Below are positions 16,886 through 57,564 of a DNA stretch of 59,090 bases, piece by piece. Position numbers and translations under genes: made by a program. The DNA comes from a virus. The notes beneath the pieces are model-generated. The model saw nothing but the letters and a program-made list of their open reading frames with translations. It was not told the origin of the DNA and did not search any database. Numbering within the stretch: the first letter of the stretch is position 1; each line of letters opens with the position of its first letter. Location of the stretch: positions 1 to 59,090 of the IMG/VR virus record IMGVR_UViG_3300005581_000015; one strand, given 5' to 3'.

Positions 16886-17244
16886 TGTCTACAGTAAACG
16901 CACCAAACTCAAAAATTGATCAAACGGTAAAAATATTTGATACCTTTTACCTGTTCGAAGCTATTGTACCTGCAATGGAGTATGAAGTCATCTACAGTTA
17001 CTTTCAGTCGGTCATGGGAACAACACAAGCCGCAGCCAACTTTACTGTCACTGTGTTTAGGATAGCACAAGAAAGTCAGACCCCGGTTATGGCAATATTT
17101 GAACAGATCAAAGGCCTTGACCAACCACAATTATCATTAACACTGGCCTACTATCTTAATGGTTTGCAAAGTTTGAGTACATTACTAGGTATTGATGCAG
17201 TGGCAACGCCAAACTACTATGCAGCCAGAAATGTTGTGGTATGA
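16885..17244 (+). CDS. Hypothetical small structural-cluster protein
   Basis: A 119-residue protein without recognised motif. Residues about 15-100 are helical with a conserved-looking FYLFEAIVPAMEYEVIYSYFQSVMG segment. The ATG overlaps the upstream stop (TAATG), and its own stop overlaps the gp4 start (ATGA), so it is translationally coupled inside the tail/head-completion operon. A virion assembly role is inferred from position only. Confidence 0.65.
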   Translation: MSTVNAPNSKIDQTVKIFDTFYLFEAIVPAMEYEVIYSYFQSVMGTTQAAANFTVTVFRIAQESQTPVMAIFEQIKGLDQPQLSLTLAYYLNGLQSLSTLLGIDAVATPNYYAARNVVV

Positions 17245-17672
17245 GCAAGTTTGCGCAAGGTGTTTTTGTCCCAACCAATCCTGACAAGTATGTAGGTCGA
17301 GGTAACATACGTTATCGCAGTGGCTGGGAACATGCTTTTATGCGATTTTGCGACACCAACGATCATATATTACAGTGGGCCAGTGAGAATGTTAGAATTC
17401 CCTATCGTCATCCACTCACAGGTAAAACTACAAACTATGTGCCAGATTTTTTGATCACGTATAGAACACGCAACAACAAAGTATGTGCTGAGCTGATTGA
17501 AATAAAACCCAAAAAACAAAGTGTACTAGAAGCAAAGATGAGCGATAGAGACCGTGCCATTGTTGCCATTAACTATGCCAAATGGGATGCCGCACAAAAG
17601 TGGTGCCGCAAACAAGGACTGGTATTTAGAGTTATTACCGAAGATCAGATCTTCCGTAACGGCAACAAGTAA
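17241..17672 (+). CDS. 4: Head completion protein (gp4-like), PD-(D/E)XK-type fold
   Basis: A 143-residue protein matching T4-like gp4 (gp50/gp4). Diagnostic segments are FAQGVFVPTNPDKYVG, YRSGWEHAFMRFCDTN, ILQWASENVRIPYRHP and YVPDFLITY followed by AELIEIKPKKQ. The last two give a D-x(n)-E-x-K arrangement typical of the restriction-endonuclease/TnsA-like fold. In T4, gp4 is needed to complete the DNA-filled head before tail joining. Length matches T4 (150). It is coupled upstream by ATGA. Confidence 0.85.
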   Translation: MSKFAQGVFVPTNPDKYVGRGNIRYRSGWEHAFMRFCDTNDHILQWASENVRIPYRHPLTGKTTNYVPDFLITYRTRNNKVCAELIEIKPKKQSVLEAKMSDRDRAIVAINYAKWDAAQKWCRKQGLVFRVITEDQIFRNGNK

Positions 17673-17686: not shown

Positions 17687-18181
17687 ATGACTAGAAAACT
17701 CGAAGAACTATTTGATTTGCCAACAAAAGAAGACAATGCCCCTGCAGAGTTTTTGTCACCGCCCAGCAAAGAAGAATTAATTGAAATAAACAACACCATT
17801 GATAAAATTGAAGCTGCCTTGCCCATGGTCAAAGGGCTTGATGCCAGTGATTCAGAAATGGATGAGTTGGCCACCAAGGCTGTGGAAAGCTACGAAAGTC
17901 TAATAGACTTGGGCATGCAAGTTGACAGTCGATTTGCCAGTGAAATTTTATCTGTGGCTGGCACAATGCTGGGGCATGCAATTACTGCCAAGACAGCAAA
18001 GATGAATAAAAAATTGAAGATGATTGATCTTCAATTAAAGAAATTAAAATTAGATCAGGATCAGGCCCGTCACACCGCTGACAATGAGCCTGATAGCGGC
18101 GCTACAGAACAGGGTCATGTGCTAGATCGCAACGATTTACTACAACGTTTGATTGGCGATCGAAACCAAATTAGCAAATGA
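17687..18181 (+). CDS. 16: Terminase small subunit (gp16-like)
   Basis: A 164-residue protein, the same length as T4 gp16. The pattern is an acidic N-terminus, then SYESLIDLGMQVDSRFASEILSVAGTMLGHAITAKTAKM followed by NKKLKMIDLQLKKLKL, the two long antiparallel helices that form the oligomerisation core of gp16 proteins. A C-terminal tail follows (RNDLLQRLIGD). gp16 recognises DNA and stimulates the gp17 motor during packaging. Here it lies 5.3 kb upstream of gp17, whereas in T4 the two genes are adjacent. Confidence 0.8.
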   Translation: MTRKLEELFDLPTKEDNAPAEFLSPPSKEELIEINNTIDKIEAALPMVKGLDASDSEMDELATKAVESYESLIDLGMQVDSRFASEILSVAGTMLGHAITAKTAKMNKKLKMIDLQLKKLKLDQDQARHTADNEPDSGATEQGHVLDRNDLLQRLIGDRNQISK

Positions 18182-18207: not shown

Positions 18208-18816
18208 ATGAAAACTTTTCAAGACTACCTAGTAGAAAGTGCTAGAACATATGATTACAGAATTAAAATTGTAGGCGACACGCCCAACAATTTTATCAAA
18301 GAATTGACCAGCAAGTTTGATCAATTTGATCCAGTATCAGTGTCTAGTCCAAAAACTACTCCCATACAAAAGCAGCCTGCTGATTTTCCAGGCTTCCCCA
18401 ACGAATCAGTGACATTTTTTGATGTTAGTTTTACATACCCTGCCATTGAACCGCAGATCAAGCAGTTGGCGCAGTTGTTGGGTGTAGACCCCAATAGAGT
18501 TATCATGCCAACACAGAAGTATGATGAAAGCAATGAAACTATTGCCAAGGACATTGAAGATCAAAACAAAGATTTATTAGCTGACACAGATTTCCCTGCG
18601 CCTGACAAAGCACAAAAAGCCGCAAGCAAAGATTATGCAACTGGTCCCTACGATCATGCTGTGTTGAAAAATGCTTACCGCAGTGACTTCACTGTGGCTG
18701 GTGGTAAAACACCTGTACCAGAAACAACCAATGACTTACCAATGGGAACCAAGAGCCCAATGAGTACAATCAAGCGGCCTGCACGTCCGCTTACTGGCCG
18801 AAACCCAAGAGGATAA
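18208..18816 (+). CDS. Putative internal head protein with capsid-targeting-like N-terminus
   Basis: A 202-residue hydrophilic protein beginning MKTFQDYLVESA. This closely parallels the T4 internal-protein capsid targeting sequence MKTYQEFIAE, which is cut after the glutamate by the prohead protease gp21 (preference (L/I)-x-E). Here the cut would follow LVE at residue 10. Residues about 15-110 form a likely alpha/beta domain; the rest is a disordered, proline-rich tail. It is placed just after the small terminase under a late box. Delivery into the cell with the DNA is inference. Function of the mature protein is unknown. Confidence 0.7.
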   Translation: MKTFQDYLVESARTYDYRIKIVGDTPNNFIKELTSKFDQFDPVSVSSPKTTPIQKQPADFPGFPNESVTFFDVSFTYPAIEPQIKQLAQLLGVDPNRVIMPTQKYDESNETIAKDIEDQNKDLLADTDFPAPDKAQKAASKDYATGPYDHAVLKNAYRSDFTVAGGKTPVPETTNDLPMGTKSPMSTIKRPARPLTGRNPRG

Positions 18817-18822
18817 TTCAAA

Positions 18823-20844
18823 ATGACATTTTTTTACGACTTAAACAAAAGACTAGACGGCATACGTGCCACTCCTGAAACTACTCATAAACAATTAAAT
18901 GAGCGTGACATGAGCAAGAGCATGGACGAAAGTGCGTTCCAAGCAGCCATTGGTAAAAAGAAATATGGTGACGAAGGCATGAAAGCCTTGCAAAAAGCTG
19001 GACGCAATCACTCCAGCGACAAGACCATGGATGCCATCCGTAACAGATTTGACAAGTACGATGAAAGTCAGGGCATGGCCGATGAAGGAACTGCATTTAC
19101 CAAGGCTGTAGTTGATGCCAAACGAGACGGTATTCAACCTGGTGAGAAAATCAACGTTGGCGGAAAAGAATATCCAGTCAAAGAAGCTGCAGGCGCAGTT
19201 GACTTTGACAAAGTACTAGATGCTATTGCCGCAATGTATGGCAATGACATGTGGCAAAATGATGCCATGCAGGATCTGGCCAATGATCTTGCACAGGCTG
19301 GACCAACTGATCGCGAACTAGATTTTATCATTGCCAAAGGTCGGTTACCAAAGCGTCTAGCTAACACACAATTCTCAGCAGGTGACAATGTTCAATTTGG
19401 CGAAGCCAGTGCTCCAATGACTGCCAAGCAAAAATCATTTGCCGCATTGGCTGAACCCAAAGACAAAATCACATTTGCTGACAAAATTGCTGGCGCCAAA
19501 AAAGAAGTTGACGAAATGCTAGGCGATGTAGCCGCAGAAGCAATGAAGAAAGCACTGGGTGGCGGCATGGGTCGCAGTGCTGAAATGGAAGAAAAAGAAG
19601 ATAACAGTCCATTCACAGCACACAAGCGTCCACGCACAGAACGACCCAAAGTCGGCAGCGTTGAGCGTGGGGCATTGCATGACATTGAACACACCGCAAC
19701 CGGTCGCAAAGTAACACGTAGAGTTGATCCCAACACCGGACACAGTGTTGGTGCCGATGATGACACTCCTGCCACTGGAGAAAAGCGTGGTAAAGGACGT
19801 CCAAAGAAAGCTGGCGGCCCAAATCAAGAGCGTGTAACTGCCAAGAGTCGTAAAACAGATCGCACAGCACATGGTCAGGATGGCTTTAAGAAAGATAAAA
19901 AAGTCAAAGAAAGTGACGAGTACGGTGATGAAGGCGACATGGCCAAAGATGACTTGCGTAGTATTGCCAAGGCAGCCGCAGAACTTAATTCATTGTTAAA
20001 CGACCATGATGATTTACCAGAGTGGGTTCAGAGCAAAATTACCAAAGCTCTAGACTACATCAACACCAGTAACCAATACATGGACCAGGAAAAATCTGAT
20101 GACGACACCGGCGATGATGTTGTAATGGGTGGCGATGAAGAGCTAGACGAAAAAGCCACAAGCAAAGCACAACGTAGAGCTGCCGCAATTGCCATGCATG
20201 CTCCCAAAGGCAAACTTCAGGGCGCCAGCAAAGAAATGAGCAAGATGCCCAAGAAAGAACTAGAGAAGTTTGCCGGCACAAAAGAAAAGGGCCTGCCTAA
20301 CAAGAAAGAAAAAACTCAAGAAACAACCTCTGCAGGTTCAGTGGCAACAAGCACTGCCGCTCCAAAGGCAGGCAAAGGCGGAGTACAGTTTGGTAAAGGC
20401 ATCTATGAAAGTCTAGATCGCCAGCTAAAACAACAACTCAACGAAGAAATGAGTATCAACATGAGTATTGGCACAGACGGCCGTAAAAGCATAACTGTCA
20501 CAGCCTCAGATGAAGATGCCGACCAACTAGCGCAGATTTTGAATCTAGCAGGTTTGCAAGGTCATGATCATGGCGCAGAAGCATGCCCTTCATGCGGCCA
20601 AGCCCCATGTGGTTGCGCTGAAGTTGTTGATGAGAATGCACCAGACTATCCACAGAACATGGGCCAAACGTCAGATACTAACTTTATGACCAAGACCAAT
20701 GCTGGCGGCTTAAACAAAGAAAAATATACTGGACAGTCAACTATTCCGGTATTGGCAAGCCAAGGTGATAGACAACATGCTTACGAGAATGTTGAACTAG
20801 AGCGTAGCTTGTTTAAATTGTATCAGGAAGTTAAATCAAAATGA
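18823..20844 (+). CDS. Large charged capsid-associated protein with AT-hook-like and zinc-knuckle-like motifs
   Basis: A 673-residue, very hydrophilic, modular protein. The N-terminus has QLNERDMSKSMDESAF with KKKYGDEGMKALQKAGR and IRNRFDKYDE, a module that recurs in aquatic T4-like virion proteins. Residues about 320-330 hold RGKGRPKK, an AT-hook-like GRP core. Residues about 375-420 have DLPEWVQSKITKALDYINT, a repeated phage module. Near residue 590 is CPSCGQAPCGC, a possible zinc knuckle. Long Lys/Glu-rich disordered linkers join the modules. This suggests a DNA-contacting prohead core or internal protein, by inference. There is no catalytic motif. Confidence 0.65.
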   Translation: MTFFYDLNKRLDGIRATPETTHKQLNERDMSKSMDESAFQAAIGKKKYGDEGMKALQKAGRNHSSDKTMDAIRNRFDKYDESQGMADEGTAFTKAVVDAKRDGIQPGEKINVGGKEYPVKEAAGAVDFDKVLDAIAAMYGNDMWQNDAMQDLANDLAQAGPTDRELDFIIAKGRLPKRLANTQFSAGDNVQFGEASAPMTAKQKSFAALAEPKDKITFADKIAGAKKEVDEMLGDVAAEAMKKALGGGMGRSAEMEEKEDNSPFTAHKRPRTERPKVGSVERGALHDIEHTATGRKVTRRVDPNTGHSVGADDDTPATGEKRGKGRPKKAGGPNQERVTAKSRKTDRTAHGQDGFKKDKKVKESDEYGDEGDMAKDDLRSIAKAAAELNSLLNDHDDLPEWVQSKITKALDYINTSNQYMDQEKSDDDTGDDVVMGGDEELDEKATSKAQRRAAAIAMHAPKGKLQGASKEMSKMPKKELEKFAGTKEKGLPNKKEKTQETTSAGSVATSTAAPKAGKGGVQFGKGIYESLDRQLKQQLNEEMSINMSIGTDGRKSITVTASDEDADQLAQILNLAGLQGHDHGAEACPSCGQAPCGCAEVVDENAPDYPQNMGQTSDTNFMTKTNAGGLNKEKYTGQSTIPVLASQGDRQHAYENVELERSLFKLYQEVKSK

Positions 20845-21521
20845 AATCACTGCGTGACTATCTCAACGAAAGCGAATACGCCTACAACAACCCAGTGGTA
20901 GGCGATAATTTTGCTATCAACGTCAAAGAAGAATGTTTGTTAGAAACATACATCTGTGGCGAAACCAAAGATGGAATAGTATTACATGCTGACGATCGTT
21001 TAATGGACTTGCTTGAAAGTTATGGATATATTGGCACACAAATTGACGAAGCCACCAGCAACAGCATTGAGTTCCAAGGCCGCACAGTTGATCGTGCCAG
21101 CATAGAACTTGACGATGTAGATTCAAGTGATTATCCAGACTTTTCAGATGCATATATTAGCTACGCCACATACACTGATGGTACACCACTTGGTGATGAC
21201 GAACTAAATCAATTCAACGATCAATATTCTGACCTAGTACATGAGTTGGCATATGATAGTCTGCATGAAGATTCCATGGACGAAGCTGAATATCACGGAC
21301 GTAATGTTCCGTTAAACAAGCCCATGCAAGGTGATGTTAAAAAATCTAAAGTGTATGTTAAAAATCCCAAAGGTAACATAGTAAAAGTCAACTTTGGCGA
21401 TCCTAACATGAAAATTAAAAAATCAAACCCTGCTCGACGCAAGAGTTTTAGAGCAAGGCACAACTGTGAGAATCCTGGACCAAAAACCAGTGCTCGCTAT
21501 TGGTCATGTCGTGCTTGGTAA
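20841..21521 (+). CDS. Putative internal head protein with C-terminal RARHNC domain
   Basis: A 226-residue protein starting MKSLRDYLNESE, again like the T4 capsid targeting sequence with a possible cut after LNE. The middle is acidic. The C-terminal 80 residues (EYHGRNVPLNKPMQGDVKKS, KVYVKNPKGNIVKVNFGDPNM, then RKSFRARHNCENPGPKTSARYWSCRAW) form a conserved domain that I know from many aquatic phage structural proteins, with a C/H set that may bind metal. It is preceded by MDEA, resembling the domain junctions in the 787-residue protein. The ATG overlaps the upstream stop (ATGA). Confidence 0.7.
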   Translation: MKSLRDYLNESEYAYNNPVVGDNFAINVKEECLLETYICGETKDGIVLHADDRLMDLLESYGYIGTQIDEATSNSIEFQGRTVDRASIELDDVDSSDYPDFSDAYISYATYTDGTPLGDDELNQFNDQYSDLVHELAYDSLHEDSMDEAEYHGRNVPLNKPMQGDVKKSKVYVKNPKGNIVKVNFGDPNMKIKKSNPARRKSFRARHNCENPGPKTSARYWSCRAW

Positions 21522-21533
21522 AAGGAAAATAAA

Positions 21534-21833
21534 ATGCCCGCAAATGTCTATACAAGTTTAGGTAACGCAACAGTTTACACAGATAAACTACAAATTACCA
21601 CCGCTGCCAACGCAGTTACATATCAAACTTATGCTGTGGCCATAGGCACAGCAGCCGCCGCAGGCAATGTCTTTAGTGCACCTATTAATATTCCAGCCAA
21701 CACTGTGTTTGAAGTTTACTCGGGTGCAGGCAACAAAGTCACTGTTGTTGGAACACCATTTACTGCATTGGAACTTGGCACAGCCAGCTCAGGTATCATT
21801 GGCGTGTCAATGTCAGTGCCGCCATCAAGATAA
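21534..21833 (+). CDS. Small beta-rich structural-type protein
   Basis: A 99-residue Ala/Thr/Val-rich protein with alternating hydrophobic residues (VFSAPINIPANTVFEVYSGAGNKVTVVG), which predicts a small beta sandwich. AAAGGAAAATAAA precedes the ATG. No lysine-rich or catalytic region. It could be a head decoration or fibre accessory protein; there is nothing more specific to use. Confidence 0.6.
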   Translation: MPANVYTSLGNATVYTDKLQITTAANAVTYQTYAVAIGTAAAAGNVFSAPINIPANTVFEVYSGAGNKVTVVGTPFTALELGTASSGIIGVSMSVPPSR

Positions 21834-21837
21834 TATA

Positions 21838-22203
21838 ATGCGAGCACAGGAGTTTATCACCGAGCAAGACGGCACAATAGGCAAACGTAGACAAGTTGCC
21901 ACAGTGGGCCTAAATGTGTTCAGTGACAGTGAAAGATCCAATAGTGACTACACTCTTAATCGTGTGATGATGGCTGTGGCCATGGCCGACGGCTCTGGCA
22001 ATGCTTTGGACATGGATGAAAAAAGTTGGGTTGGCAAGCAACGTTCAGCACATCCTTATACCAAAGTTGAGCAAAACATGCTCAAACAGGCTTTCAAAGC
22101 CGCTGGCGCAAACTACACAGATTTAAATCACGGCGACATGGATTCTGAAGAGCATCCAGCAGTCAACACCACTAGCCCAATTCAAGGGTTCAAGGGCTAC
22201 TGA
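21838..22203 (+). CDS. Putative internal head protein, paralogue A
   Basis: A 121-residue protein starting MRAQEFITEQDG. The start at 21838 is chosen because the downstream neighbour begins with the same sequence and the preceding in-frame codons overlap the upstream gene. The first ten residues match the T4 capsid targeting type, with a cut predicted after ITE. The body includes ADGSGNALDMDEKSWVGK and ends SPIQGFKGY. The paralogue 22203-22583 has the same N-terminus and end (SPVKPFKGY) but a diverged middle. The two genes overlap at TGATG. Confidence 0.7.
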   Translation: MRAQEFITEQDGTIGKRRQVATVGLNVFSDSERSNSDYTLNRVMMAVAMADGSGNALDMDEKSWVGKQRSAHPYTKVEQNMLKQAFKAAGANYTDLNHGDMDSEEHPAVNTTSPIQGFKGY

Positions 22204-22583
22204 TGAGAGCCCGTGAGTTCATTACTGAACAAAAAGAACTGGCACCAGAGCAGGCTAACCCCATGCGTTACACTTATGTGATTCCGGGACTCAGTGCATC
22301 GGACCCTTACAACAACTATAGATTTGGTGTGGCAATGGCTAGAGCCCGTAGCGATCAGGCAACCGACGGAGTAAACCCGTTCCGACCAGATTGGAGTGCA
22401 GAAACACCGTTTGGTGAACACGGTGTAGTAGTTGGCATGAATGCTGGCATTGCTCCACTTATTGACCAAGCATTGAAAATGACCAACACACCGGGTGGTA
22501 AGAAATTAGTGTCTACTCCCAAAAGCGATGAACCTGACTTTGTAGTCACACAAAGTCCAGTCAAGCCATTTAAGGGTTATTAA
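22203..22583 (+). CDS. Putative internal head protein, paralogue B
   Basis: A 126-residue protein starting MRAREFITEQKE and ending SPVKPFKGY, clearly related to the gene before it. Middle section: YTYVIPGLSASDPYNNYRFGVAMA and GEHGVVVGMNAGIAPLIDQALK. The conserved ends with variable centres resemble fast-evolving T4 internal proteins, of which IPI blocks a host restriction enzyme. Whether these act in the same way is unknown. No separate ribosome binding site is obvious, so translation is probably coupled. Confidence 0.7.
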   Translation: MRAREFITEQKELAPEQANPMRYTYVIPGLSASDPYNNYRFGVAMARARSDQATDGVNPFRPDWSAETPFGEHGVVVGMNAGIAPLIDQALKMTNTPGGKKLVSTPKSDEPDFVVTQSPVKPFKGY

Positions 22584-22875: not shown

Positions 22876-23313
22876 ATGAAAAAACTCTTCCTGCTCTTAC
22901 TTGTATTACCCGTGCTGGCCTTTGCACAACCCAAACAACGTCCAGGCGTCACATATGATGCTGTGATCACCAGAGTCATAGACGGTGACACAGTGGGCAT
23001 TCAAGCCACATGGCTGCCAGCACCGCTCAAACCAGAACTCAGTGTTCGTGTGTACGGTGTAGACACTCCTGAAAAAGGACATCGTGCGCAGTGTGCCAGT
23101 GAAGCACAAAGAGGTGAAGCAGCCTCGGCATTTACCAAGCAACTGATTGCCAACAGTCAAAAACGACAGATTGTGCTCATGGACTGGGACAAGTATGGCG
23201 GACGTGTGCTTGGCGACGTCATCCTCAACGGCGTTAGTCTGCGCCAACAGTTAATCGCCAATGGTTTTGCTCGCGAATATTACGGCGAAGCGAAAACCAG
23301 TTGGTGTCAATAA
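22876..23313 (+). CDS. Secreted staphylococcal-type nuclease (thermonuclease)
   Basis: A 145-residue SNase-fold nuclease. Residues 1-17 are a Sec signal peptide: MKK, then a run of leucines and valines, then AFA for cleavage before QPK. The catalytic pattern is present: VIDGDTV with calcium-binding aspartates, VRVYGVDTPEKG with Arg and Glu, and DKYGGRVLGDV with the second Arg. Cys pairs near residue 74 and the C-terminus could form a disulphide, as fits periplasmic location. The product would cut DNA or RNA in the host periplasm or outside the cell. It lies between the internal-protein block and the large terminase. Confidence 0.87.
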   Translation: MKKLFLLLLVLPVLAFAQPKQRPGVTYDAVITRVIDGDTVGIQATWLPAPLKPELSVRVYGVDTPEKGHRAQCASEAQRGEAASAFTKQLIANSQKRQIVLMDWDKYGGRVLGDVILNGVSLRQQLIANGFAREYYGEAKTSWCQ

Positions 23314-23442: not shown

Positions 23443-25011
23443 ATGGCCGCAAAAGACGAAATCACATTAATCAAATCCCCGCATAAAAAACAGTTGTACT
23501 CAGACATAGAATTACAACAGTTTGCAAAGTGTGCTGACCCTGTGACAGGCCCACTGTATTTCATGGACAATTTTTTCTATATACAACATCCTACCAAAGG
23601 TAGAATGTTGTATCACCCGTTTGATTATCAACGTCGACTTGTGGAAACATATCACAACTATCGATTCAGCATTTCAATGATGCCGCGGCAAACTGGTAAG
23701 TCAACATCGGCAGCTGGATATTTGTTATGGTATGCAATGTTTGTACCAGACAGCACAATCTTGGTTGCCGCACACAAGTACACTGGATCACAAGAGATTA
23801 TGCAACGCATTCGTTATGCGTATGAAAGTGTGCCAGACCATATCAGAGCCGGAGTCACAAGTTACAACAAAGGCAATTTAGATTTTGACAATGGCAGTCG
23901 TATTGTTTCAGCAACTACCACAGAAAATACCGGTCGTGGTATGAGTATATCATTGCTGTACGCAGACGAGTTTGCATTTGTACGACCCACCATTGCCACA
24001 GAATTCTGGACCTCTATCAGCCCCACGTTGGCCACTGGTGGTAAAGCAATTATTACCTCAACACCCAACAGCGACGAGGATCAGTTTGCACTGTTATGGA
24101 AAGGTGCCAACAAGTGTGAAGATGCATATGGCAACCCCACTGAATTAGGTATCAACGGATTTAAATCATATCGTAGTTACTGGAAAGAACACCCGGACCG
24201 TGATGACAAATGGGCAGTTGAACAACGTGCACAATTGGGCGAAGATCGTTTTAGACGAGAAATGGACTGCGAGTTCATTATCAATGACGAAACACTAATT
24301 GCACCTACTACATTAATTGACTTAGCTGGTGAAGACCCAGCTTACAGAATTGGTCAAGTACGTTGGTACAAAAAACCCGAACGAGATCGCATTTATGTTG
24401 TGGCCTTGGATCCCAGCCTTGGCACCGGCGGCGATCCGGCTGCTATACAAATATTCGAAGCCAACACCACAGTACAGATAGGCGAATGGCGACATAATAA
24501 AACCACAATTCCTGAGCAAATACGCATACTGGCCGACATTGTTGCACACATCAACGAAGTTGTTAAAAATCCACAGAACGTGTATTTCAGTGTGGAAAAC
24601 AACACCATTGGCGAGGCCGCACTGATATCCATTGCTGAGTACGGAGAAGAAAACATACAGGGCTATTTCCTCAGCGAAATTGGTGGCACCAGTGGCCGCA
24701 GGTATCGCAAAGGATTTAACACAGCACACAAGAGCAAACTTGCGGCCTGTTCTAAATTCAAAAACTTAATTGAATCACGTCGAATGACCATCAACAGCCG
24801 GCCGTTAATCAGCGAGCTTAAAACCTTTGTGGCACATGGCCTTAGCTATGCGGCCAAACCCGGGGAAACTGACGACTTAGTAATGTCTACATTGTTGGCT
24901 GTGCGTATGCTACAAACCCTGCAAAACTACCACAGTGATCTCAATGCACAGATCAAAGACCACAGCGACATGCTAATTGAGCCCATGCCCTTTATTAGTA
25001 TAATGCGATAA
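23443..25011 (+). CDS. 17: Terminase large subunit (gp17-like packaging motor)
   Basis: A 522-residue terminase. The ATPase domain has Walker A PRQTGKST (about residues 83-90), Walker B LLYADEFAF with the catalytic Glu, and a TSTPNSDED coupling motif. The nuclease domain begins at VVALDPSLGTGGDPAA with the first metal-binding Asp, followed by SVENNTIGEAALI and a C-terminal GETDDLVMSTLLA. It cuts concatemeric DNA and pumps it into the prohead with gp16. T4 gp17 is 610 residues; the N-terminal region is shorter here. No ribosome binding site is seen. Confidence 0.95.
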   Translation: MAAKDEITLIKSPHKKQLYSDIELQQFAKCADPVTGPLYFMDNFFYIQHPTKGRMLYHPFDYQRRLVETYHNYRFSISMMPRQTGKSTSAAGYLLWYAMFVPDSTILVAAHKYTGSQEIMQRIRYAYESVPDHIRAGVTSYNKGNLDFDNGSRIVSATTTENTGRGMSISLLYADEFAFVRPTIATEFWTSISPTLATGGKAIITSTPNSDEDQFALLWKGANKCEDAYGNPTELGINGFKSYRSYWKEHPDRDDKWAVEQRAQLGEDRFRREMDCEFIINDETLIAPTTLIDLAGEDPAYRIGQVRWYKKPERDRIYVVALDPSLGTGGDPAAIQIFEANTTVQIGEWRHNKTTIPEQIRILADIVAHINEVVKNPQNVYFSVENNTIGEAALISIAEYGEENIQGYFLSEIGGTSGRRYRKGFNTAHKSKLAACSKFKNLIESRRMTINSRPLISELKTFVAHGLSYAAKPGETDDLVMSTLLAVRMLQTLQNYHSDLNAQIKDHSDMLIEPMPFISIMR

Positions 25012-25021: not shown

Positions 25022-27385
25022 ATGGCAACAAATACACCTTCAGCACAATTACACGATTTATTGGTCACGCATGACTTTGATGTAGAATCAAAAGATGCCA
25101 AACGCCCTAACACCACACCTGCGCCCGAAGATGCAGACATGTTTGTGTTTGATTTTGAGGCCAACGGAAACAACTATGGCACTGTGGTGACCTTATTTGA
25201 CAAAGACGGAACATTGAATTTATTCTACGGTGACAACGTGGGAAAATCCATGGAACCTGCAGATAAAAAAGAATGGTACGATTTTCTTTACCAGCTCACC
25301 ATGTTTGCCAAGCGCAACTGCCCGTCTTTTGAAATGCAAAACATCAGTAGATTGAAGTACACTCTCAAAGGCATTTCGGCAATCAACGAAGGATTGTTTG
25401 AAGGCTACTATGGAAACAAGAAAGTCAGCTATGCCGGCGAGCCCACAGAAGCACGATTGATGATCAAACACAATCGTCAACTGGGTGAAAATGACAAGCG
25501 TTATCGTTATGTGGAAAGTTTGTTTATTGAAACTGCAGATGATCAAAGATTTAGACTACCATTTACAAATCTAGCTGGTGGCCGCGCCATGCTAGAGCAT
25601 GTACGCCAGGGTGGCAAGCCCTACGACATTCGTGGTTGCCATATTGCAGAAATGGTGGAAGATGCCAAAGTACTAAGCAGATTTAATCGTGCTAAACAAA
25701 ATAAGATTTTTGAAGGCGAAACCAGCGAGTTAGTTGAAGCCAGCACAGCCTACTACGAAAGTGTACGCCACACTATCAAAAGTCTAGGCAACGGACGTGG
25801 ATATCAAAAGTACTTTGAGTCCTGGAGTCCAGCGCAGATCAACGAAACTGACACCTTAGTTGACTCAATAAAAGAAATGTTTATTGAACAAACACTAGAC
25901 TCTAGAATTGAGCAGGCCCTGCCAATACTGGCCAAAATAAGACAAAGAGAGACCAATATGAAAGAAGCACAAGTATTTGAAAACTGGGTCAACCAGGTAT
26001 GTGAGGGAACTTGGAGTTTGCCAGACGATCCTGACCAACGAGCTAAATTACAAAAGCTAATGAGCCAACCGTTGCTGGTTGGTCCAGACGCAACCAATGC
26101 CACTGAACAGTTGTATGACCTAGTGGGTGATGATCAGTTGTTTGATATCTTGGGCGACATAGCTGACCAGGATGGTGGCCCAGACATGAACGCCTGGGAT
26201 GATCCGCGTGTGATGGACCGCATGTATGAATTGGGCATTGATATGGCCCAGCCAGATGGTAATCAGGAGCAAGACATTGACCCTAGACAAGATCTAGATG
26301 AGTTGTCTCCTCAAACACTGGCAAGTTATGTTAAAAAATCCAATACTGATGCTAGAGATAGACTTCGTCAAGATCCAAAAAATCAATTTAAAAAAGCTGA
26401 AAAAAGAACCGCTGGTATAGGTCAAGCCATTGGCAAAATTCGTGCCACAATGGAACCTGCTACTAAACAGCAAGGTGTAGAGGAAGGTGCCATGAAGCAC
26501 CAAATGCATGCTGATGCAGACCGCATGAGTCGTGAACAATTTTGTGACAAGTATGGCAACGAGAACGGAGAATTCTGGGATAACATAAATGGCGAACTCA
26601 ACGAGGGCCAAGAAGACAGCGCAGTAGCCAGTGCTCTTACACGTCGCATCATGAGTCAACGTTTGGATTTGCTAAAGAAATATGGTCCAGTAAAAGTTAC
26701 TCAAGCAATTGATTCTGCCGCAGAATTTTTTGGTGACGTAGAAGAAATTGGTAGCAGTGACCTGAATGCCTACATGCAATATGTTGAAAAAGAACTAGGC
26801 GGCATGGCTGAGCAAGGTATAGATGAAGCTGATATGAACCGTAGAGGATTCTTAAAAGGACTTGGCGCTGCCGCAGTGGCCGGAGCCGCTGGTGTAGCAA
26901 GTGCTGATCAACAACAAGATTTAGGCAATGGCTTTGTTTTAACAACTATCAATGTTGCTGGACACACAGTTAAAGCAGTATTAGACACTGAAAGCAACAT
27001 AAGTGTTACTCTAAATCGTGGTACTAATGGATCTGCTATTATCAGAAGTCAAGCACGTTTTCTTTCAGTCAAGGATGGAAAAATTGTAGGCGCAAGCATG
27101 GATGTTGGACCGGCCACCACTGCCGCAATGAAAAAAGCTGGACTGTTAGAAAATGTAGAGCACGGTATGGAGGAAGCAATTGATCCAACAAATCCCAGAG
27201 ACTACGAGATTCCAGCTTACCAACGCAAGGAAAAAGGTATGCCACCCCTGACCCCCAGCGACATCGAAGACAAAGACAACGCCAGTCCAACCACACAACA
27301 AGGTCTAGACACACTAAAAAACAAATTGGGCATTAGAGAAAACAAAGATTTGACTAGAATTAAGCAACTTCTTCAAAAGATATAA
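25022..27385 (+). CDS. 787-residue modular virion-type protein with an internal Tat-signal segment
   Basis: A large hydrophilic protein. Residues 1-330 are a folded region of unknown family. Residues about 425-475 have ELSPQTLASYVKKSNTD with KKAEKRTAGIGQAIGKI, a module repeated in many aquatic phage head proteins. Three similar junctions follow: QGVEEG (about 484), QGIDEA (about 599) and HGMEEA (about 714). After the second is a textbook twin-arginine signal: M605, NRRGFLKG, an Ala-rich core and ASA-D. Cleavage at these Glu junctions by the prohead protease would release small domains (inference). Position after gp17 and a late box agree with a head protein. Confidence 0.65.
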   Translation: MATNTPSAQLHDLLVTHDFDVESKDAKRPNTTPAPEDADMFVFDFEANGNNYGTVVTLFDKDGTLNLFYGDNVGKSMEPADKKEWYDFLYQLTMFAKRNCPSFEMQNISRLKYTLKGISAINEGLFEGYYGNKKVSYAGEPTEARLMIKHNRQLGENDKRYRYVESLFIETADDQRFRLPFTNLAGGRAMLEHVRQGGKPYDIRGCHIAEMVEDAKVLSRFNRAKQNKIFEGETSELVEASTAYYESVRHTIKSLGNGRGYQKYFESWSPAQINETDTLVDSIKEMFIEQTLDSRIEQALPILAKIRQRETNMKEAQVFENWVNQVCEGTWSLPDDPDQRAKLQKLMSQPLLVGPDATNATEQLYDLVGDDQLFDILGDIADQDGGPDMNAWDDPRVMDRMYELGIDMAQPDGNQEQDIDPRQDLDELSPQTLASYVKKSNTDARDRLRQDPKNQFKKAEKRTAGIGQAIGKIRATMEPATKQQGVEEGAMKHQMHADADRMSREQFCDKYGNENGEFWDNINGELNEGQEDSAVASALTRRIMSQRLDLLKKYGPVKVTQAIDSAAEFFGDVEEIGSSDLNAYMQYVEKELGGMAEQGIDEADMNRRGFLKGLGAAAVAGAAGVASADQQQDLGNGFVLTTINVAGHTVKAVLDTESNISVTLNRGTNGSAIIRSQARFLSVKDGKIVGASMDVGPATTAAMKKAGLLENVEHGMEEAIDPTNPRDYEIPAYQRKEKGMPPLTPSDIEDKDNASPTTQQGLDTLKNKLGIRENKDLTRIKQLLQKI

Positions 27386-28518: not shown

Positions 28519-29178
28519 ATGTTGAGTCAAATTGATAAAACAATTTGTCCTGACAGTTGTGAGGTGGTAGAGATACCATCCTCACAACAACATGTGTTTT
28601 TAATTTTCAAAAATGCTAGTTCTTCTATACGTATGGAATGCGAACGCCAGTCAGGAAAACACTACAATGCCAGCAATGTAACAGAACTTGCAGACATTGA
28701 TGTTTATCTACGTCAGCCTCGTGCTAGATATGTGTCTGGAGTCAATACATTTTTACAAAATTTACTCAAAGAAAATTCCAAGTTAGATCGACAAACAATT
28801 TTGTTCTTTGTTAAACAATTTCATTTCTTAAATCGTCATTATCTTCCGCAGTTTCACTGGTTGTTGAACTTAAACAGATTTAACAATCATTGCAGATTGA
28901 CACTGCGCGATGTTGATACTGTTGCAACAATTACAGATTATTATGATCAGCCTGTTGAAATATTAGCTGATGATCATTTTGAAGATTTGTTACAAATTGA
29001 TAATCGGGTTGAGTTATGGTTTTTCTTAGATAACATACTTAGAGAATTAATTGGAAAAACGTTGACATTTGCAGAAATATTAGAATACATTAAACACACA
29101 CAGCCTGACACATTTGATATTATTTTCAAAGACCAATTAGCATTATTACAGCCAGCGTATGTATTGTCCAAGACTTGA
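28519..29178 (+). CDS. Sulfotransferase-like protein
   Basis: A 219-residue protein with the outline of a small sulfotransferase: HVFLIFKNASSSI near residue 30 resembles the PAPS-binding 5'-loop, and DVYLRQPRARYVSGVNTFL near residue 62 resembles the conserved R-x-P-x-x-R-(Y/F)-x-S-G segment. The C-terminal half is helical. Classical sulfotransferases move a sulfonate from PAPS to a sugar or protein. It overlaps the next gene, a radical SAM protein, by 20 bp, so the two are probably made together. The acceptor is unknown. Confidence 0.55.
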   Translation: MLSQIDKTICPDSCEVVEIPSSQQHVFLIFKNASSSIRMECERQSGKHYNASNVTELADIDVYLRQPRARYVSGVNTFLQNLLKENSKLDRQTILFFVKQFHFLNRHYLPQFHWLLNLNRFNNHCRLTLRDVDTVATITDYYDQPVEILADDHFEDLLQIDNRVELWFFLDNILRELIGKTLTFAEILEYIKHTQPDTFDIIFKDQLALLQPAYVLSKT

Positions 29179-30178
29179 TCACTTTGCAAGACTTAATCCC
29201 GAAGGAAAGATTTCAAAGTGTGGTCACATGGTCAATGCACCATTGTTTAGATCATTCAATGAAATGCAATCTAGTCAATGGCTAGAATCGGTCAAGGAAC
29301 AACTTGATAATGAAGTATGGCCCAGCGAATGCGTTAGATGTCAGACAACTGAAGAAATCAACGAAGGTAGTGTTCGGTTACAAACTATTAGTAGACACAA
29401 CAACCTGCTAGTGCATAATCCCAATTATCTAATAATTGGCGGCGTCTTAGACAATGTATGTAATAGTGCATGCCAAAGTTGTAACAGTGATTTAAGCACA
29501 AAAATTGGTAGCTTAGAAAGTGGTAAAAATTATATACAGATCAACAACGTTGAATTGTTTAATCGATTGCCCAAAGACCAAATAGTGCAATTGGATATCA
29601 ATGGTGGGGAACCAACTGCAAGTCCAAATTATCAAGCATTGTTACAATCCTTGCCAGACTCTGTAAAATATGTTAGACTTAATACAAATGCATCCCGAGT
29701 ATTACCCAATATCGAAGAACTATTACACAAAGACGTTCACTTGACTGTGACTATAAGTTTAGACGGAGTTGGCAATGTGCACGATTATGTGCGTTGGCCA
29801 ATTAAGTGGACAACTTTCATAGAGACAGTACAATCATATAAACAACTAACAACTCAGTATTCAAATTTACATTTGGATTTTTGGACAACCATACATGCTT
29901 TAAATGTAGCTGACTTGGATAACATAATTCAATTTGCAAATAACACTGACATACTTTGGTTTTTTGGCGTGCTCGAAACACCCAGTGAGTTGAGTATCCG
30001 TAATACTAATTTGCTCACTTTGTCTGCAAAGAAAAAATTATCATTGTCCAACAACGAGATATGTAGTAAACTATGTAAATTAATTGCAACTGATAACACT
30101 AATCAATCTAACATTGACGAATTCATAAACAAACAAGATTCATTGCGAAACATCAACATTTTGCAGTATAATATTTAA
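29159..30178 (+). CDS. Radical SAM protein, twitch type (copy 1)
   Basis: A 339-residue radical SAM enzyme. The iron-sulphur motif C-x3-C-x2-C is at C101, C105 and C108 (VCNSACQSC). The SAM-binding GGEP motif is in LDINGGEPTASP near residue 143, and SLDGVGNVHDYVRWP gives the usual beta-5/6 signature. An N-terminal cluster site precedes it with C3, C21, C58 and C61, as in N-terminal-twitch radical SAM proteins. The reaction is unknown; relatives in phages and islands are uncharacterised. It overlaps a sulfotransferase-like gene upstream. Confidence 0.8.
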   Translation: MYCPRLDHFARLNPEGKISKCGHMVNAPLFRSFNEMQSSQWLESVKEQLDNEVWPSECVRCQTTEEINEGSVRLQTISRHNNLLVHNPNYLIIGGVLDNVCNSACQSCNSDLSTKIGSLESGKNYIQINNVELFNRLPKDQIVQLDINGGEPTASPNYQALLQSLPDSVKYVRLNTNASRVLPNIEELLHKDVHLTVTISLDGVGNVHDYVRWPIKWTTFIETVQSYKQLTTQYSNLHLDFWTTIHALNVADLDNIIQFANNTDILWFFGVLETPSELSIRNTNLLTLSAKKKLSLSNNEICSKLCKLIATDNTNQSNIDEFINKQDSLRNINILQYNI

Positions 30179-49264: not shown

Positions 49265-50734
49265 ATGAAAACAGCACAATTGGTTATTTCGGATGAAGTC
49301 AACTGTAAAATTAACGGACTTGATTTAGAAACCCGCAAAACACTAAGCAACAAATTCAAATACGACATTCCTTATGCACGTTATCTTCCTGCGGTTAGGT
49401 TGGGGAGGTGGGATGGTAAGATGGCGTTCTTCCATCTTGGTGGATCGTCATTTGTAAATCTGTTGCCAGAGATACTGCCAATATTAGAACGATATGGTTA
49501 TGATATTGAGTTAGAGGACTTGCGCGAATACTCAACTACCTTCGAATTTACACCTGTTACAGAAACTACGTTTGCACACAAAGCCTGGCCCAAGGGTCAC
49601 CCTGCAGAAGGTCAGTCTGTGGTGCTACGTGACTACCAGGTTGAGATTGTCAACAATTTCTTAACCAATCCGCAGTGCCTGCAAGAGGTAGCCACAGGCG
49701 CAGGCAAGACTTTGATGACTGCGGCTTTGAGTTACAGCATAGAAGCACATGGGCGCAGTATTGTCATTGTTCCCAACAAAAGTCTAGTAACGCAAACAGA
49801 AAAAGATTACATTAATCTTGGATTGGATGTGGGGGTATACTTTGGCGATAGAAAAGAGTATAACAAAACACACACAATCTGTACTTGGCAAAGTCTTAAT
49901 AACATGTTTAAGAAGACTAAGACAGGTGAGGCCGAAGTCAACATACACGACTTTATTGAGGGTGTGGTCTGTGTCATGGTTGATGAAGTACACATGGCCA
50001 AAGCAGACGCACTTAAAACACTATTAACTGGAGTATTTGCTAGAGTGCCTATCCGTTGGGGCTTGACAGGAACCATCCCCAAAGAGCAGTTTGAGTTCCA
50101 AGCATTGCATGTCAGTATTGGTCCTGTGATCAGTAGACTCACAGCCAATGAACTGCAACAACAAGGTGTGCTGGCAAACTGCCATGTCAACATTGTTCAA
50201 CTAATTGACAATGTAGAATACAGCAATTATCAAAGTGAGCTAAAGTACTTGCTGGAAGAAACGGGTAGACTTGACACCATTGCTGGGTTAATTAAACAAG
50301 TCAACGAAACCGGCAACACCTTGGTGCTAGTAGACAGGGTGGCCGCAGGCAAAGAGCTAGCAAGTAGACTAGGAGACCGAGCAGTGTTTGTTAGTGGCGC
50401 AACCAAAGCAAAGGATAGACAAGATGAATATGATGAAGTGGCGGAATCGACTGGTAAGATTATCGTGGCGACTTATGGTGTGGCCGCTGTGGGTATTAAT
50501 ATCCCTCGTATTTTTAATTTGGTACTTTTGGAATCCGGAAAGAGCTTTACAAGAGTTATACAAAGCATTGGGCGCGGCATTAGAAAAGCAGAGGACAAGG
50601 ACTTCGTACAAATCTGGGATGTGACCAGTACTTGTAAATTTGCCAAACGTCATTTAACTAAACGCAAGCAATTTTATCGAGAAGCTAACTATCCTTTTAC
50701 TTTAGAGAAATTAGATTGGATGGTGCTTGCATAA
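49265..50734 (+). CDS. uvsW: UvsW helicase (SF2)
   Basis: A 489-residue SF2 helicase matching T4 UvsW (503 residues). Motif I ATGAGKTLM, motif II VMVDEVHMAK (DEVH), motif III WGLTGTIPK, motif VI QSIGRGIRK. The N-terminal 100 residues (VISDEVNCKINGL with KYDIPYARYLPAVRLGRWDGK) are the UvsW-specific DNA-binding domain. UvsW unwinds R-loops, promotes branch migration and helps switch replication origin use. It lies next to a terminator and its own promoter. The following radical SAM gene overlaps the stop (TAATG). Confidence 0.93.
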   Translation: MKTAQLVISDEVNCKINGLDLETRKTLSNKFKYDIPYARYLPAVRLGRWDGKMAFFHLGGSSFVNLLPEILPILERYGYDIELEDLREYSTTFEFTPVTETTFAHKAWPKGHPAEGQSVVLRDYQVEIVNNFLTNPQCLQEVATGAGKTLMTAALSYSIEAHGRSIVIVPNKSLVTQTEKDYINLGLDVGVYFGDRKEYNKTHTICTWQSLNNMFKKTKTGEAEVNIHDFIEGVVCVMVDEVHMAKADALKTLLTGVFARVPIRWGLTGTIPKEQFEFQALHVSIGPVISRLTANELQQQGVLANCHVNIVQLIDNVEYSNYQSELKYLLEETGRLDTIAGLIKQVNETGNTLVLVDRVAAGKELASRLGDRAVFVSGATKAKDRQDEYDEVAESTGKIIVATYGVAAVGINIPRIFNLVLLESGKSFTRVIQSIGRGIRKAEDKDFVQIWDVTSTCKFAKRHLTKRKQFYREANYPFTLEKLDWMVLA

Positions 50735-51951
50735 TGCAACCTAGTAATCTTTGCCTAGCACCATTCACTTATATGACTTTTGATCCAGCTACAAATGTCA
50801 GCCCGTGCCCAGCATTGGGCGGAAGTGTTTGGAACTTTAAAGATCAGCCGTTACAACGAATCTGGACCAATGAACAGTTAACTGAATTTAGAGACCACAT
50901 GCTAGAAAACAACAAGCATGAAGTGTGCCATCGTTGTTGGGATGAAGAAGCAGTTGGCATGGACAGCGAACGCACAATGTTATGGGATCCAGACAAAGAC
51001 CCCACCGGAGTTAATACTGTAATTCTTGACAGCGGTAAAACAGCCGCAGATATTTTAAGAAATTACAAACAAGGACCAATGCAACTTATTATCAAAGTAG
51101 GCAATGTTTGTAATCTTCGATGCCGTAGTTGTAATTCTGCAGACAGTATTACTTTATCTGTCGAAGGAAAGTATTATGCAGACCATTATGGATTAACAAA
51201 AAATTTCTATCTTAAAGAGACTGAGACTAAAACATTTACTGATGCACAAATTGATGAGATAATCCAATTTTGCAATAACGTTGTTAGGATTGAATTTTAT
51301 GGCGGCGAACCATTATTGGACAAACAGCTTCCTAAATTTTTACGTAAGTTAGTTGAACTTGATCTTGCTAAAAAAATCAATTTAAACATCAGCACCAATG
51401 TCACACACATAATCAGCGATGAGCTAATTGAAACTTTGTCACATTTTAATCATTTAAACATTAATTTAAGCATTGATGCTTGGGGAGATAAGTTTACCTA
51501 TGTACGACATCCAGGTAAGTGGAATGATGTCTACTGCAACATTAAATGGTTTATCCAACTGCGAGATTCAGGAAAACTAAAGCTATCATTATTGATAGCA
51601 ACAACCGTGACAATAATGAATGTCTACAACTTGCCAGAACTGCTAGATGAATTTGATTTGTTGGAATTACCGGTATTCTTAATATTAGCATGGTTCCCAC
51701 ACTATTATTCTATTAGAAACATCCCAGACAATATTGCACAAGCAATTGCCCAACGTCTAACTGCAACCGGCCGCAACAATCTTCGACCCATTACACAGGC
51801 CCTAAGCAACGGCTTTGATGCAGAACACTGGGGCAAATTTAAGAGTTGGACCATCATGGTTGACAAGTATCGCAACGAATCCTTTGCAACAACATTTCCA
51901 GAATACACAAAATTAATAAAAACCTATGACGATAAGGTTGACTTTGTTTGA
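50734..51951 (+). CDS. Radical SAM protein, twitch type (copy 2)
   Basis: A 405-residue radical SAM enzyme. C-x3-C-x2-C at C126, C130 and C133 (VCNLRCRSC). GGEP-like motif FYGGEPLLDKQ. Auxiliary N-terminal cysteines C7, C25, C65 and C68, as in copies 1 and 3, suggest a second iron-sulphur cluster in a twitch domain. The start MQPSNLCLAPF at 50734 overlaps the uvsW stop and is preferred over 50716. Substrate unknown. Confidence 0.82.
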   Translation: MQPSNLCLAPFTYMTFDPATNVSPCPALGGSVWNFKDQPLQRIWTNEQLTEFRDHMLENNKHEVCHRCWDEEAVGMDSERTMLWDPDKDPTGVNTVILDSGKTAADILRNYKQGPMQLIIKVGNVCNLRCRSCNSADSITLSVEGKYYADHYGLTKNFYLKETETKTFTDAQIDEIIQFCNNVVRIEFYGGEPLLDKQLPKFLRKLVELDLAKKINLNISTNVTHIISDELIETLSHFNHLNINLSIDAWGDKFTYVRHPGKWNDVYCNIKWFIQLRDSGKLKLSLLIATTVTIMNVYNLPELLDEFDLLELPVFLILAWFPHYYSIRNIPDNIAQAIAQRLTATGRNNLRPITQALSNGFDAEHWGKFKSWTIMVDKYRNESFATTFPEYTKLIKTYDDKVDFV

Positions 51952-56568: not shown

Positions 56569-57564
56569 ATGATCGATCTGGCATCCTACCTACCTGCAAA
56601 AAGAAAACATACCCCATCGGGATGGATGAGTTTCAATGCGGTTTGTTGCACACACAATGGCAACAATTTGGACAAGCGGCAACGTGGTGGTATCAAGTTG
56701 TCAGACCAAGGTTGGAGTTACCATTGCTTTAACTGTGGATACACTGCTAGTTTTATTTTAGGTCGCACTCTGAGCTTTAAAGCTCGAAAGCTATTAAGTT
56801 GGATGGGGGTGCCGGATCACGAAATTGACATGGCTAATCTTGAAAGCCTAAGACACAAAAGCATACATGGCATTCTTGATGAACGACAACAAACGTTCAA
56901 TGCATTGGCTGCAATTGAGTTTGGAGACGCTGATGATTTACCTCCTTTTAGTGAAGTCGTCACAGAAGACTATCCTTATTATTGGAAATATATTCGCCAG
57001 AGACATGTCCCAGAAGATTTTCCTATACTAACTGCAATTAAAAATGATGGTGTTCATTGGGTTAGACCTTTTGTGCTGGTACCGTTTACATATGACAACA
57101 AGGTAGTGGGCTGGACTGCTAGATTTTTAGATAATAAACTACCCAAGTATATTAATCATTCGCAACCGGGGTATGTATTTGGCACAGACTTACAACAATC
57201 AAACTGGGAACATGTTCTGGTGATGGAAGGCATTTTTGACGCACTCAGTATTGGCGGCCTTGCAGTTATGCACAACACTGTCAGCGACAGTCAAGCTAGA
57301 TTAATACGTAGTTTAGGCAAACAGGTAACTGTTGTGCCTGACCAGGACAAAGCAGGATTAGAATTAATTGATCGTGCTGTAGAACTAGGATGGGCAGTAA
57401 GTATACCCACCTGGCCAGAACATATTAAAGATGTAAACGATGCTGTAATAGCATATGGTAGGTTGGGTGCATTATTAACTATAATGCAGGCAAGGGAGAC
57501 CAGTAGAATTAAAATAGAAATGCACAAGAAAAAACTCATCAAGACATTGGCATTAAAAAAATGA
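56569..57564 (+). CDS. 61: DNA primase (gp61-like)
   Basis: A 331-residue DnaG-type primase matching T4 gp61 (342 residues). Zinc-binding N-terminus: VCCTHNGNNLDKR with WSYHCFNCGY. TOPRIM core: LVMEGIFDALSI and VPDQDKAGLELI. It makes RNA primers together with gp41 helicase, encoded 1.1 kb downstream behind a radical SAM gene. The ATG is at 56569 next to the promoter, so a leaderless start is likely. Confidence 0.9.
   Translation: MIDLASYLPAKRKHTPSGWMSFNAVCCTHNGNNLDKRQRGGIKLSDQGWSYHCFNCGYTASFILGRTLSFKARKLLSWMGVPDHEIDMANLESLRHKSIHGILDERQQTFNALAAIEFGDADDLPPFSEVVTEDYPYYWKYIRQRHVPEDFPILTAIKNDGVHWVRPFVLVPFTYDNKVVGWTARFLDNKLPKYINHSQPGYVFGTDLQQSNWEHVLVMEGIFDALSIGGLAVMHNTVSDSQARLIRSLGKQVTVVPDQDKAGLELIDRAVELGWAVSIPTWPEHIKDVNDAVIAYGRLGALLTIMQARETSRIKIEMHKKKLIKTLALKK

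What the first reader, a model, noticed from the sequence alone, without database searches (positions are those of the whole stretch)
18208..22583. Four proteins with T4-type capsid-targeting N-termini: candidate injected effectors
Seen: MKTFQDYLVE, MKSLRDYLNE, MRAQEFITE, MRAREFITE at the N-termini of four genes in one block. Known: T4 internal proteins IPI-III begin MKTYQEFIxE, a signal that loads them in the prohead, is cut after Glu by gp21, and lets them enter the host with the DNA; IPI inhibits a restriction enzyme. Inference: these are packaged internal proteins with anti-defence or takeover roles. None has a recognised domain.
Basis: partly seen in the sequence, partly recalled or inferred. 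Interest (0 to 1): 0.85.

Follow-up and report, generated by a model that had tools for sequence, protein, structure and literature searches.

The report
Capsid-loading tags on phage head proteins
Four proteins of a freshwater T4-like virus of bacteria start with a short address label that very probably sends them inside the virus head; three belong to a gene block shared by most of its relatives, and the same label marks dozens of unrelated proteins in related viruses, so it can be used to find what these viruses may inject into bacteria.

Summary
Four genes, separated by untagged genes at 18823 and 21534, start MKTFQDYLVE, MKSLRDYLNE, MRAQEFITE and MRAREFITE. All fit the T4 capsid-targeting/gp21 site consensus. 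The tag is conserved in 119/121, 122/123 and 111/114 homologues of three of them. Its invariant positions in the 10-residue form are 4, 7, 8 and 10, those mapped by mutagenesis in T4 IPIII. Twelve of 16 relatives encode the S77 prohead protease and gp23. A homologue of the first protein (PA5oct gp282) is annotated as mass-spectrometry-detected in virions.

The effector claim is not supported for these four. P0001, P0004 and P0005 form a near-fixed block beside the terminase genes (52-58 of 58 loci; P0003 18 of 58), are not basic like T4 internal proteins, and have no effector domain. They look like core head-interior proteins. Elsewhere in relatives the tag sits on effector-like enzymes, for example an ADP-ribosyltransferase. 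This is a new tag variant with a much wider cargo list. Loading, cleavage and injection remain unproven.

The parts
18208..18816 (+). P0001, tagged 202-aa protein with a ferredoxin-like body; relative of PA5oct gp282
18208..18237 (+). predicted capsid-targeting propeptide MKTFQDYLVE of P0001; predicted cut after Glu10
   Evidence: positions 4, 7, 8, 10, 11 conserved 97-100% in 119 homologues
18823..20844 (+). P0002, 673-aa untagged acidic/repetitive protein (DUF3008 segment), conserved member of the block, possible prohead core protein
   Evidence: present in 55 of 58 loci; role inferred
20841..21521 (+). P0003, tagged 226-aa protein with basic C-terminal domain
20841..20870 (+). predicted capsid-targeting propeptide MKSLRDYLNE of P0003
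21285..21518 (+). P0003 residues 149-226: basic domain (pI 10.6, phrog_7595) that begins right after a second protease-like site MDE|AEY
21534..21833 (+). 99-aa untagged protein, usually kept in the block
   Evidence: 53 of 58 loci
21838..22203 (+). P0004, tagged 121-aa protein, paralogue of P0005
   Evidence: profile comparison without the tag, 100% probability, E 1.6e-41
21838..21864 (+). predicted capsid-targeting propeptide MRAQEFITE of P0004
22203..22583 (+). P0005, tagged 126-aa protein, paralogue of P0004
22203..22229 (+). predicted capsid-targeting propeptide MRAREFITE of P0005
   Evidence: Glu9 in 112 of 112 aligned homologues
17241..17672 (+). gp4-type head completion protein flanking the block
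   Evidence: phrog_218 E 5e-42
17687..18181 (+). gp16-like (small terminase position) protein flanking the block
   Evidence: phrog_16202, unknown function; syntenic with PA5oct gp283; role by position only
23443..25011 (+). large terminase, downstream flank
   Evidence: phrog_36964 E 7e-113
25022..27385 (+). P0006, 787-aa virion-type protein with internal QGVEEG and QGIDEA sites, downstream of the terminase
   Evidence: phrog_13484; homologue annotated virion structural, ESI-MS/MS, in PA5oct

Best explanation
The four N-termini are capsid-targeting propeptides of the T4 kind in two forms: a 10-residue form, MK-x-[FL]-x-x-Y-L-x-E, and a 9-residue form, M-R-A-x-E-F-[IVL]-x-E. During head assembly they dock the proteins to the prohead core. 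The S77 prohead protease (gp21) then cuts after the final Glu, and the mature proteins stay inside the head with the DNA and may leave with it at infection. P0001, P0004 and P0005 are conserved head-interior components of this clade of freshwater T4-like phages, not variable anti-defence factors. The same tag elsewhere in related genomes carries variable, effector-like cargo. Shown: the tag, its position-specific conservation, its N-terminal placement, its modular spread over unrelated bodies, the protease and gp23 in most relatives, and a virion-annotated homologue of P0001. Inferred: core docking, cleavage, location inside the head, ejection.
For: Tag conserved in 119/121 P0001, 122/123 P0004 and 111/114 P0005 homologues. 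In P0001 the invariant positions are 4 (F 97%), 7 (Y 100%), 8 (L 97%) and 10 (E 99%); T4 IPIII mutagenesis maps targeting to residues 4 and 7 and processing to 8 and 10 (PMC9026906). Column entropy about doubles just after the tag in P0004/P0005. The same scan of T4 itself finds ipII, ipIII and gp61.1 plus one chance hit. 12 of 16 relatives carry S77 protease and gp23. The gp23 of these relatives has KYLKE|NASAG where T4 gp23 has SFLTE|AEIGG. PA5oct gp282, a P0001 homologue in the same gene order, is noted 'structural protein, ESI-MS/MS'. Body-agnostic scans: 262 of 275 matches open ORFs of 60 aa or more, 30 body clusters, permuted control 0. Kyanoviridae phage C48C1 carries the P0003 domain behind MKKFKQYIDE, whereas podovirus HTVC111P has the bare domain starting at Met.
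Against: The window, a 59-kb fragment, holds no S77 protease or gp23. Some long relatives (342, 262 and 215 kb) also show none, even by direct protein search, though IMG/VR records may be fragments. The PA5oct and Phosso homologues of P0001 have lost the Glu (MKSFRDYYDAS, MKNFYEYLSS), so cleavage is not universal in the family. P0003 keeps the motif in only 28 of 45 hits (many of these share only its C-terminal domain or are wrongly started). T4 internal proteins are basic (pI 9.0-9.7), but mature P0001, P0004 and P0005 have pI 5.9-6.8. No mass-spectrometry evidence was found for P0003, P0004 or P0005.
Confidence: 0.75

Rival explanations
1. One reading: the four are packaged, injected effectors with anti-defence or takeover roles, like T4 IPI-III.
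For: Shared signal with T4 internal proteins. T4 Ip1-3 all inhibit GmrSD-type restriction enzymes (PMC12373910). Relatives carry the tag on an ADP-ribosyltransferase (PF03496, E 2e-14) and other enzymes.
Against: P0001, P0004 and P0005 are present in nearly all of 58 loci in fixed order between gp4/gp16-like and terminase genes; anti-restriction IPs are variable and accessory. No Pfam effector domain, no PDB sequence relative, not basic.
Confidence: 0.2
2. The N-terminal helix is an assembly-docking element of virion proteins with no link to capsid import or gp21, for example a neck, tail or terminase contact.
For: The block sits among tail tube, head completion and terminase genes. Two P0001 homologues keep the helix but not the Glu. 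Tagged peptidoglycan-cutting enzymes exist (SLT, GH19), and such enzymes are often tail parts.
Against: Same invariant positions as the T4 signal, Glu kept in over 97% of homologues of three families, and attachment to about 30 unrelated bodies. In T4, Asp at position 10 blocks processing but not targeting (PMC9026906), so loss of Glu is compatible with a targeting tag. Internal, ejected SLT enzymes have a precedent in T7 gp16 (own knowledge).
Confidence: 0.15
3. Chance similarity of short peptides, or common ancestry of the four proteins carrying the N-terminus along.
For: P0004 and P0005 are paralogues, so their shared tag is not independent.
Against: P0001, P0003 and the P0004/P0005 pair fall in separate body clusters; the permuted control pattern has 0 hits; start versus internal Met p = 7e-16.
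Confidence: 0.02

Closest known systems
T4 internal proteins IPI, IPII, IPIII (capsid targeting sequence MKTYQEFIAE)
   Same: Same length class, same hydrophobic positions and Glu at the cut site, N-terminal, on otherwise unrelated bodies, in phages with an S77 gp21 protease and gp23
   Different: Bodies unrelated; P0001/P0004/P0005 are near-neutral to acidic rather than basic; they are fixed beside the terminase genes instead of in variable loci; the 9-residue MRAxEF form is new to me and was not found in the papers searched
T4 Alt (packaged ADP-ribosyltransferase)
   Same: Head-packaged cargo processed by gp21; relatives carry an ADP-ribosyltransferase behind MRAQEFIPE (L360)
   Different: Alt has another propeptide (MELITELFDE); none of the four window proteins is an ADP-ribosyltransferase
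PA5oct gp282 (phrog_14802 virion structural protein)
   Same: Homologue of P0001 from residue 1, same gene order, recorded as virion protein by ESI-MS/MS
   Different: N-terminus MKSFRDYYDAS lacks the cleavage Glu; about 27-33% identity; no P0004/P0005 there
T4 gp61.1
   Same: Starts MKTFKEFIKE; its mature part imitates the N-arm of its own gp23, as a small tagged family in relatives does
   Different: That small family was not seen in the window

Membership tests
Capsid-targeting-sequence proteins of T4-like phages | N-terminal ~10-residue propeptide with key residues 4, 7 (targeting) and 8, 10 (processing) | tested here: met
   benchmark from PMC9026906. The 9-residue form aligns with a one-residue shift
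Capsid-targeting-sequence proteins of T4-like phages | Genome encodes the S77 gp21 prohead protease and gp23 | tested here: inconclusive
   12 of 16 relatives yes; the window fragment itself has neither
Capsid-targeting-sequence proteins of T4-like phages | Cleavage after Glu in the virion | not testable with these tools
   needs N-terminal proteomics
Capsid-targeting-sequence proteins of T4-like phages | Presence in the virion | tested here: inconclusive
   P0001 homologue in PA5oct noted ESI-MS/MS; nothing for P0003-P0005
T4 internal proteins IPI-IPIII | Basic mature protein | tested here: not met
   pI 5.9, 4.7, 5.9, 6.8 against 9.0-9.7 for IPI-III; only the C-terminal domain of P0003 is basic (10.6)
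T4 internal proteins IPI-IPIII | Variable, accessory locus | tested here: not met
   P0001, P0004, P0005 in 52-58 of 58 loci in fixed order; P0003 in 18 of 58
T4 internal proteins IPI-IPIII | Injected; inhibits GmrSD-type restriction | not testable with these tools
   needs expression and plating assays

The most novel reading that the evidence does not exclude
MRAxEF(I/V)xE is a portable capsid-import code of a widespread clade of freshwater T4-like jumbo phages. It loads dozens of unrelated proteins (ADP-ribosyltransferase, probable kinase-like, nucleotidyltransferase, acetyltransferase and ParB-like proteins, peptidoglycan enzymes) into the head for injection. Some are polyproteins that the prohead protease would cut at QGV(A/T)EG linkers. 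The tag would then predict the injected effector set of uncultured phages from sequence alone.
Probability: 0.5. Interest if true: 0.85.

Novelty: new variant of a known kind. Interest (0 to 1): 0.62.

Why it matters
Which proteins phages inject with their DNA is mostly unknown outside a few model phages. A start-of-gene tag that can be read from sequence turns this into a lookup for a very abundant group of environmental phages. It yields a ranked list of candidate host-takeover and counter-defence proteins, and a short peptide for loading foreign proteins into their heads. For the four window proteins themselves it gives a location (inside the head) where none was known.

Tried and rejected
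P0005 against named phage genomes: no match. AlphaFold of P0005: mean pLDDT 61, no usable fold match. AlphaFold of P0001: residues ~15-100 a ferredoxin-like layout at pLDDT ~80, matching S6-type ribosomal folds only weakly and its own jumbo-phage relatives in BFVD; no function follows. PDB sequence search: nothing for either. Late promoter TATAAATA: one match in the window, at 27381, downstream of P0006, none at the block. The ADP-ribosyltransferase and the small gp23-arm-like family: no match in named phages. Homology between P0002 and PA5oct gp281: positional only, no sequence match found. A gp23-arm-like stretch in P0002 (TTSAGSVAT, residue 501) is not significant (7% of shuffles as good).

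Full report
What is there. The window is a 59,090-base IMG/VR virus record from a T4-like phage: tail sheath, tail tubes, gp4-type head completion, large terminase, gp32-, UvsX- and UvsY-like genes. Between a gp16-like gene (17687) and the large terminase (23443) lie P0001, P0002, P0003, a 99-aa gene, P0004, P0005, a 92-aa gene and a secreted SNase-like gene. The four N-termini are exactly as reported. P0002 and the 99-aa gene between them lack the motif.

Is it more than chance? In three related genomes and the window, 22 of 975 gene starts but only 2 of 5018 internal Met carry M[KR]...[FY][ILVM]xE (p = 7e-16). Of 275 matches, 262 open reading frames of at least 60 aa, and only 7 have 50 or more open in-frame codons upstream. 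Synonymous codons vary at each position. The same motif scan of T4 finds ipII, ipIII, gp61.1 and one chance hit; ipI (MKTFKEFTST) is missed, so the scan is conservative.

Conservation pattern. P0001 has 462 IMG/VR relatives, P0004 103, P0005 65. The tag is kept in 119/121, 122/123 and 111/114 full-length homologues. In P0001 the fixed positions are 4, 7, 8 and 10, with 11 (Ser); in P0004/P0005 they are 2, 3, 5, 6, 7 and 9, after which column entropy roughly doubles. T4 IPIII mutagenesis put targeting at residues 4 and 7 and processing at 8 and 10, with Asp at 10 allowing targeting but not processing (PMC9026906). That would explain how PA5oct gp282 can lack Glu and still be a virion protein. 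One caveat: part of the homologue set was collected with peptide patterns that include the tag.

Machinery. 12 of 16 relatives have both the S77 protease and gp23. Among 20 body-agnostic hits on large contigs, 8 have the protease, 7 of them among the 8 contigs above 190 kb. The gp23 of relatives reads KYLKE|NASAGSTVSGNIAT where T4 has SFLTE|AEIGG, the same [FY]LxE logic. Some long records show no protease; fragmentation is likely but unproved.

Virion evidence. The P0001 homologue PA5oct gp282 lies in the same order (tail tubes, gp4, gp16-like, gp282, gp281, terminase, virion proteins) and the record notes ESI-MS/MS detection. I did not read the primary proteomics paper. Atu_ph07 gp113 starts MKTLQDYLTES, but I could not see whether it is among the 131 virion proteins reported for that phage (PMC6102473).

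Core or effector? In 58 distinct loci spanning P0001 to terminase, P0002 is found in 55, P0004 in 52, P0005 in 53, and P0003 in 18. This fixed block next to the packaging genes argues for core head proteins. P0004 and P0005 are paralogues (100% probability without the tag). None is basic, unlike IPI-III. P0003 is mosaic: its C-terminal domain (phrog_7595) is found alone or fused in pelagiphages, roseophages, methylophages and Flavobacterium phages. In T4-like versions it follows a [LM]xE|AEY-type site, in Kyanoviridae phage C48C1 it carries its own MKKFKQYIDE tag, and in podovirus HTVC111P it starts bare. This suggests that P0003 is cut twice.

Where the effectors may be. Relative G005 has five further tagged genes at 54-74 kb and G001 three at 275-292 kb, including acetyltransferase-like and ParB-like proteins by inspection. 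Sampled tagged bodies with Pfam support include an ADP-ribosyltransferase (2e-14), an SLT transglycosylase (1e-18), GH19 plus LysM (1e-17), HTH proteins, and weak GNAT matches. Kinase-like and nucleotidyltransferase-like calls are by eye only, without a Pfam match. G005:64466 is a tagged 542-aa protein with four QGV(T/A)EG linkers and one KGVTES site; such sites also occur in P0006 of the window. Genome-wide the linker pattern is barely above its reversed control, so only the local clustering is notable.

What is known. Capsid targeting, gp21 processing and IP diversity are established for T4 (PMC3012670, PMC9026906). In 2025 Ip2 and Ip3 were added to Ip1 as GmrSD inhibitors (PMC12373910). No paper in the library held both 'capsid targeting' and 'metagenom', and I found no report of the MRAxEF form; the library lacks most subscription journals.

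Verdict. The effector inference for these four is weak (about 0.2). The wider, testable result is a portable head-import tag with a broad cargo list.

Noticed in passing
T4 gp61.1 (NC_000866 18966-19130) and tagged 51-78 aa family, e.g. L310:5983: After the tag, both imitate the N-arm of the mature gp23 of their own clade (T4 gp61.1 against T4 gp23: score 69, shuffles 20 +/- 4; small family against relative's gp23: 48, shuffles 20 +/- 4).
   Followed up: partly
G005:C1:64466-66094; G001:C1:284693-286162 and 293467-294597; window 25022-27385: Repeated QGV[ATE]EG linkers inside multi-domain proteins of the tagged clusters and in P0006: possible polyproteins cut by the prohead protease.
   Followed up: partly
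L296:9337 and L399:4180: Tag occurs inside a longer open frame right after ...IKYANRMIRE / ...IKYANKVIRE, as if two cargo genes had fused.
   Followed up: no
window 22876-23313: Staphylococcal-nuclease-like protein with a signal peptide, kept before the terminase in 41 of 58 loci.
   Followed up: no
window 25022-27385, near residue 605: Tat-like stretch MNRRGFLKGLGAAAVAGAAGVASA in the middle of the virion-type protein P0006, right after a QGIDEA site.
   Followed up: no
window 29159-30178, 50716-51951, 57561-58670: Three radical-SAM-type proteins in one 59-kb phage fragment.
   Followed up: no
G001:C1:292407-292955 and 294594-294860: Neighbours of tagged genes start MRANEFTQPRAAG and MRASEFIGTVAK: tag-like starts that have lost the Glu, the first on a NUDIX-like body by eye.
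   Followed up: no
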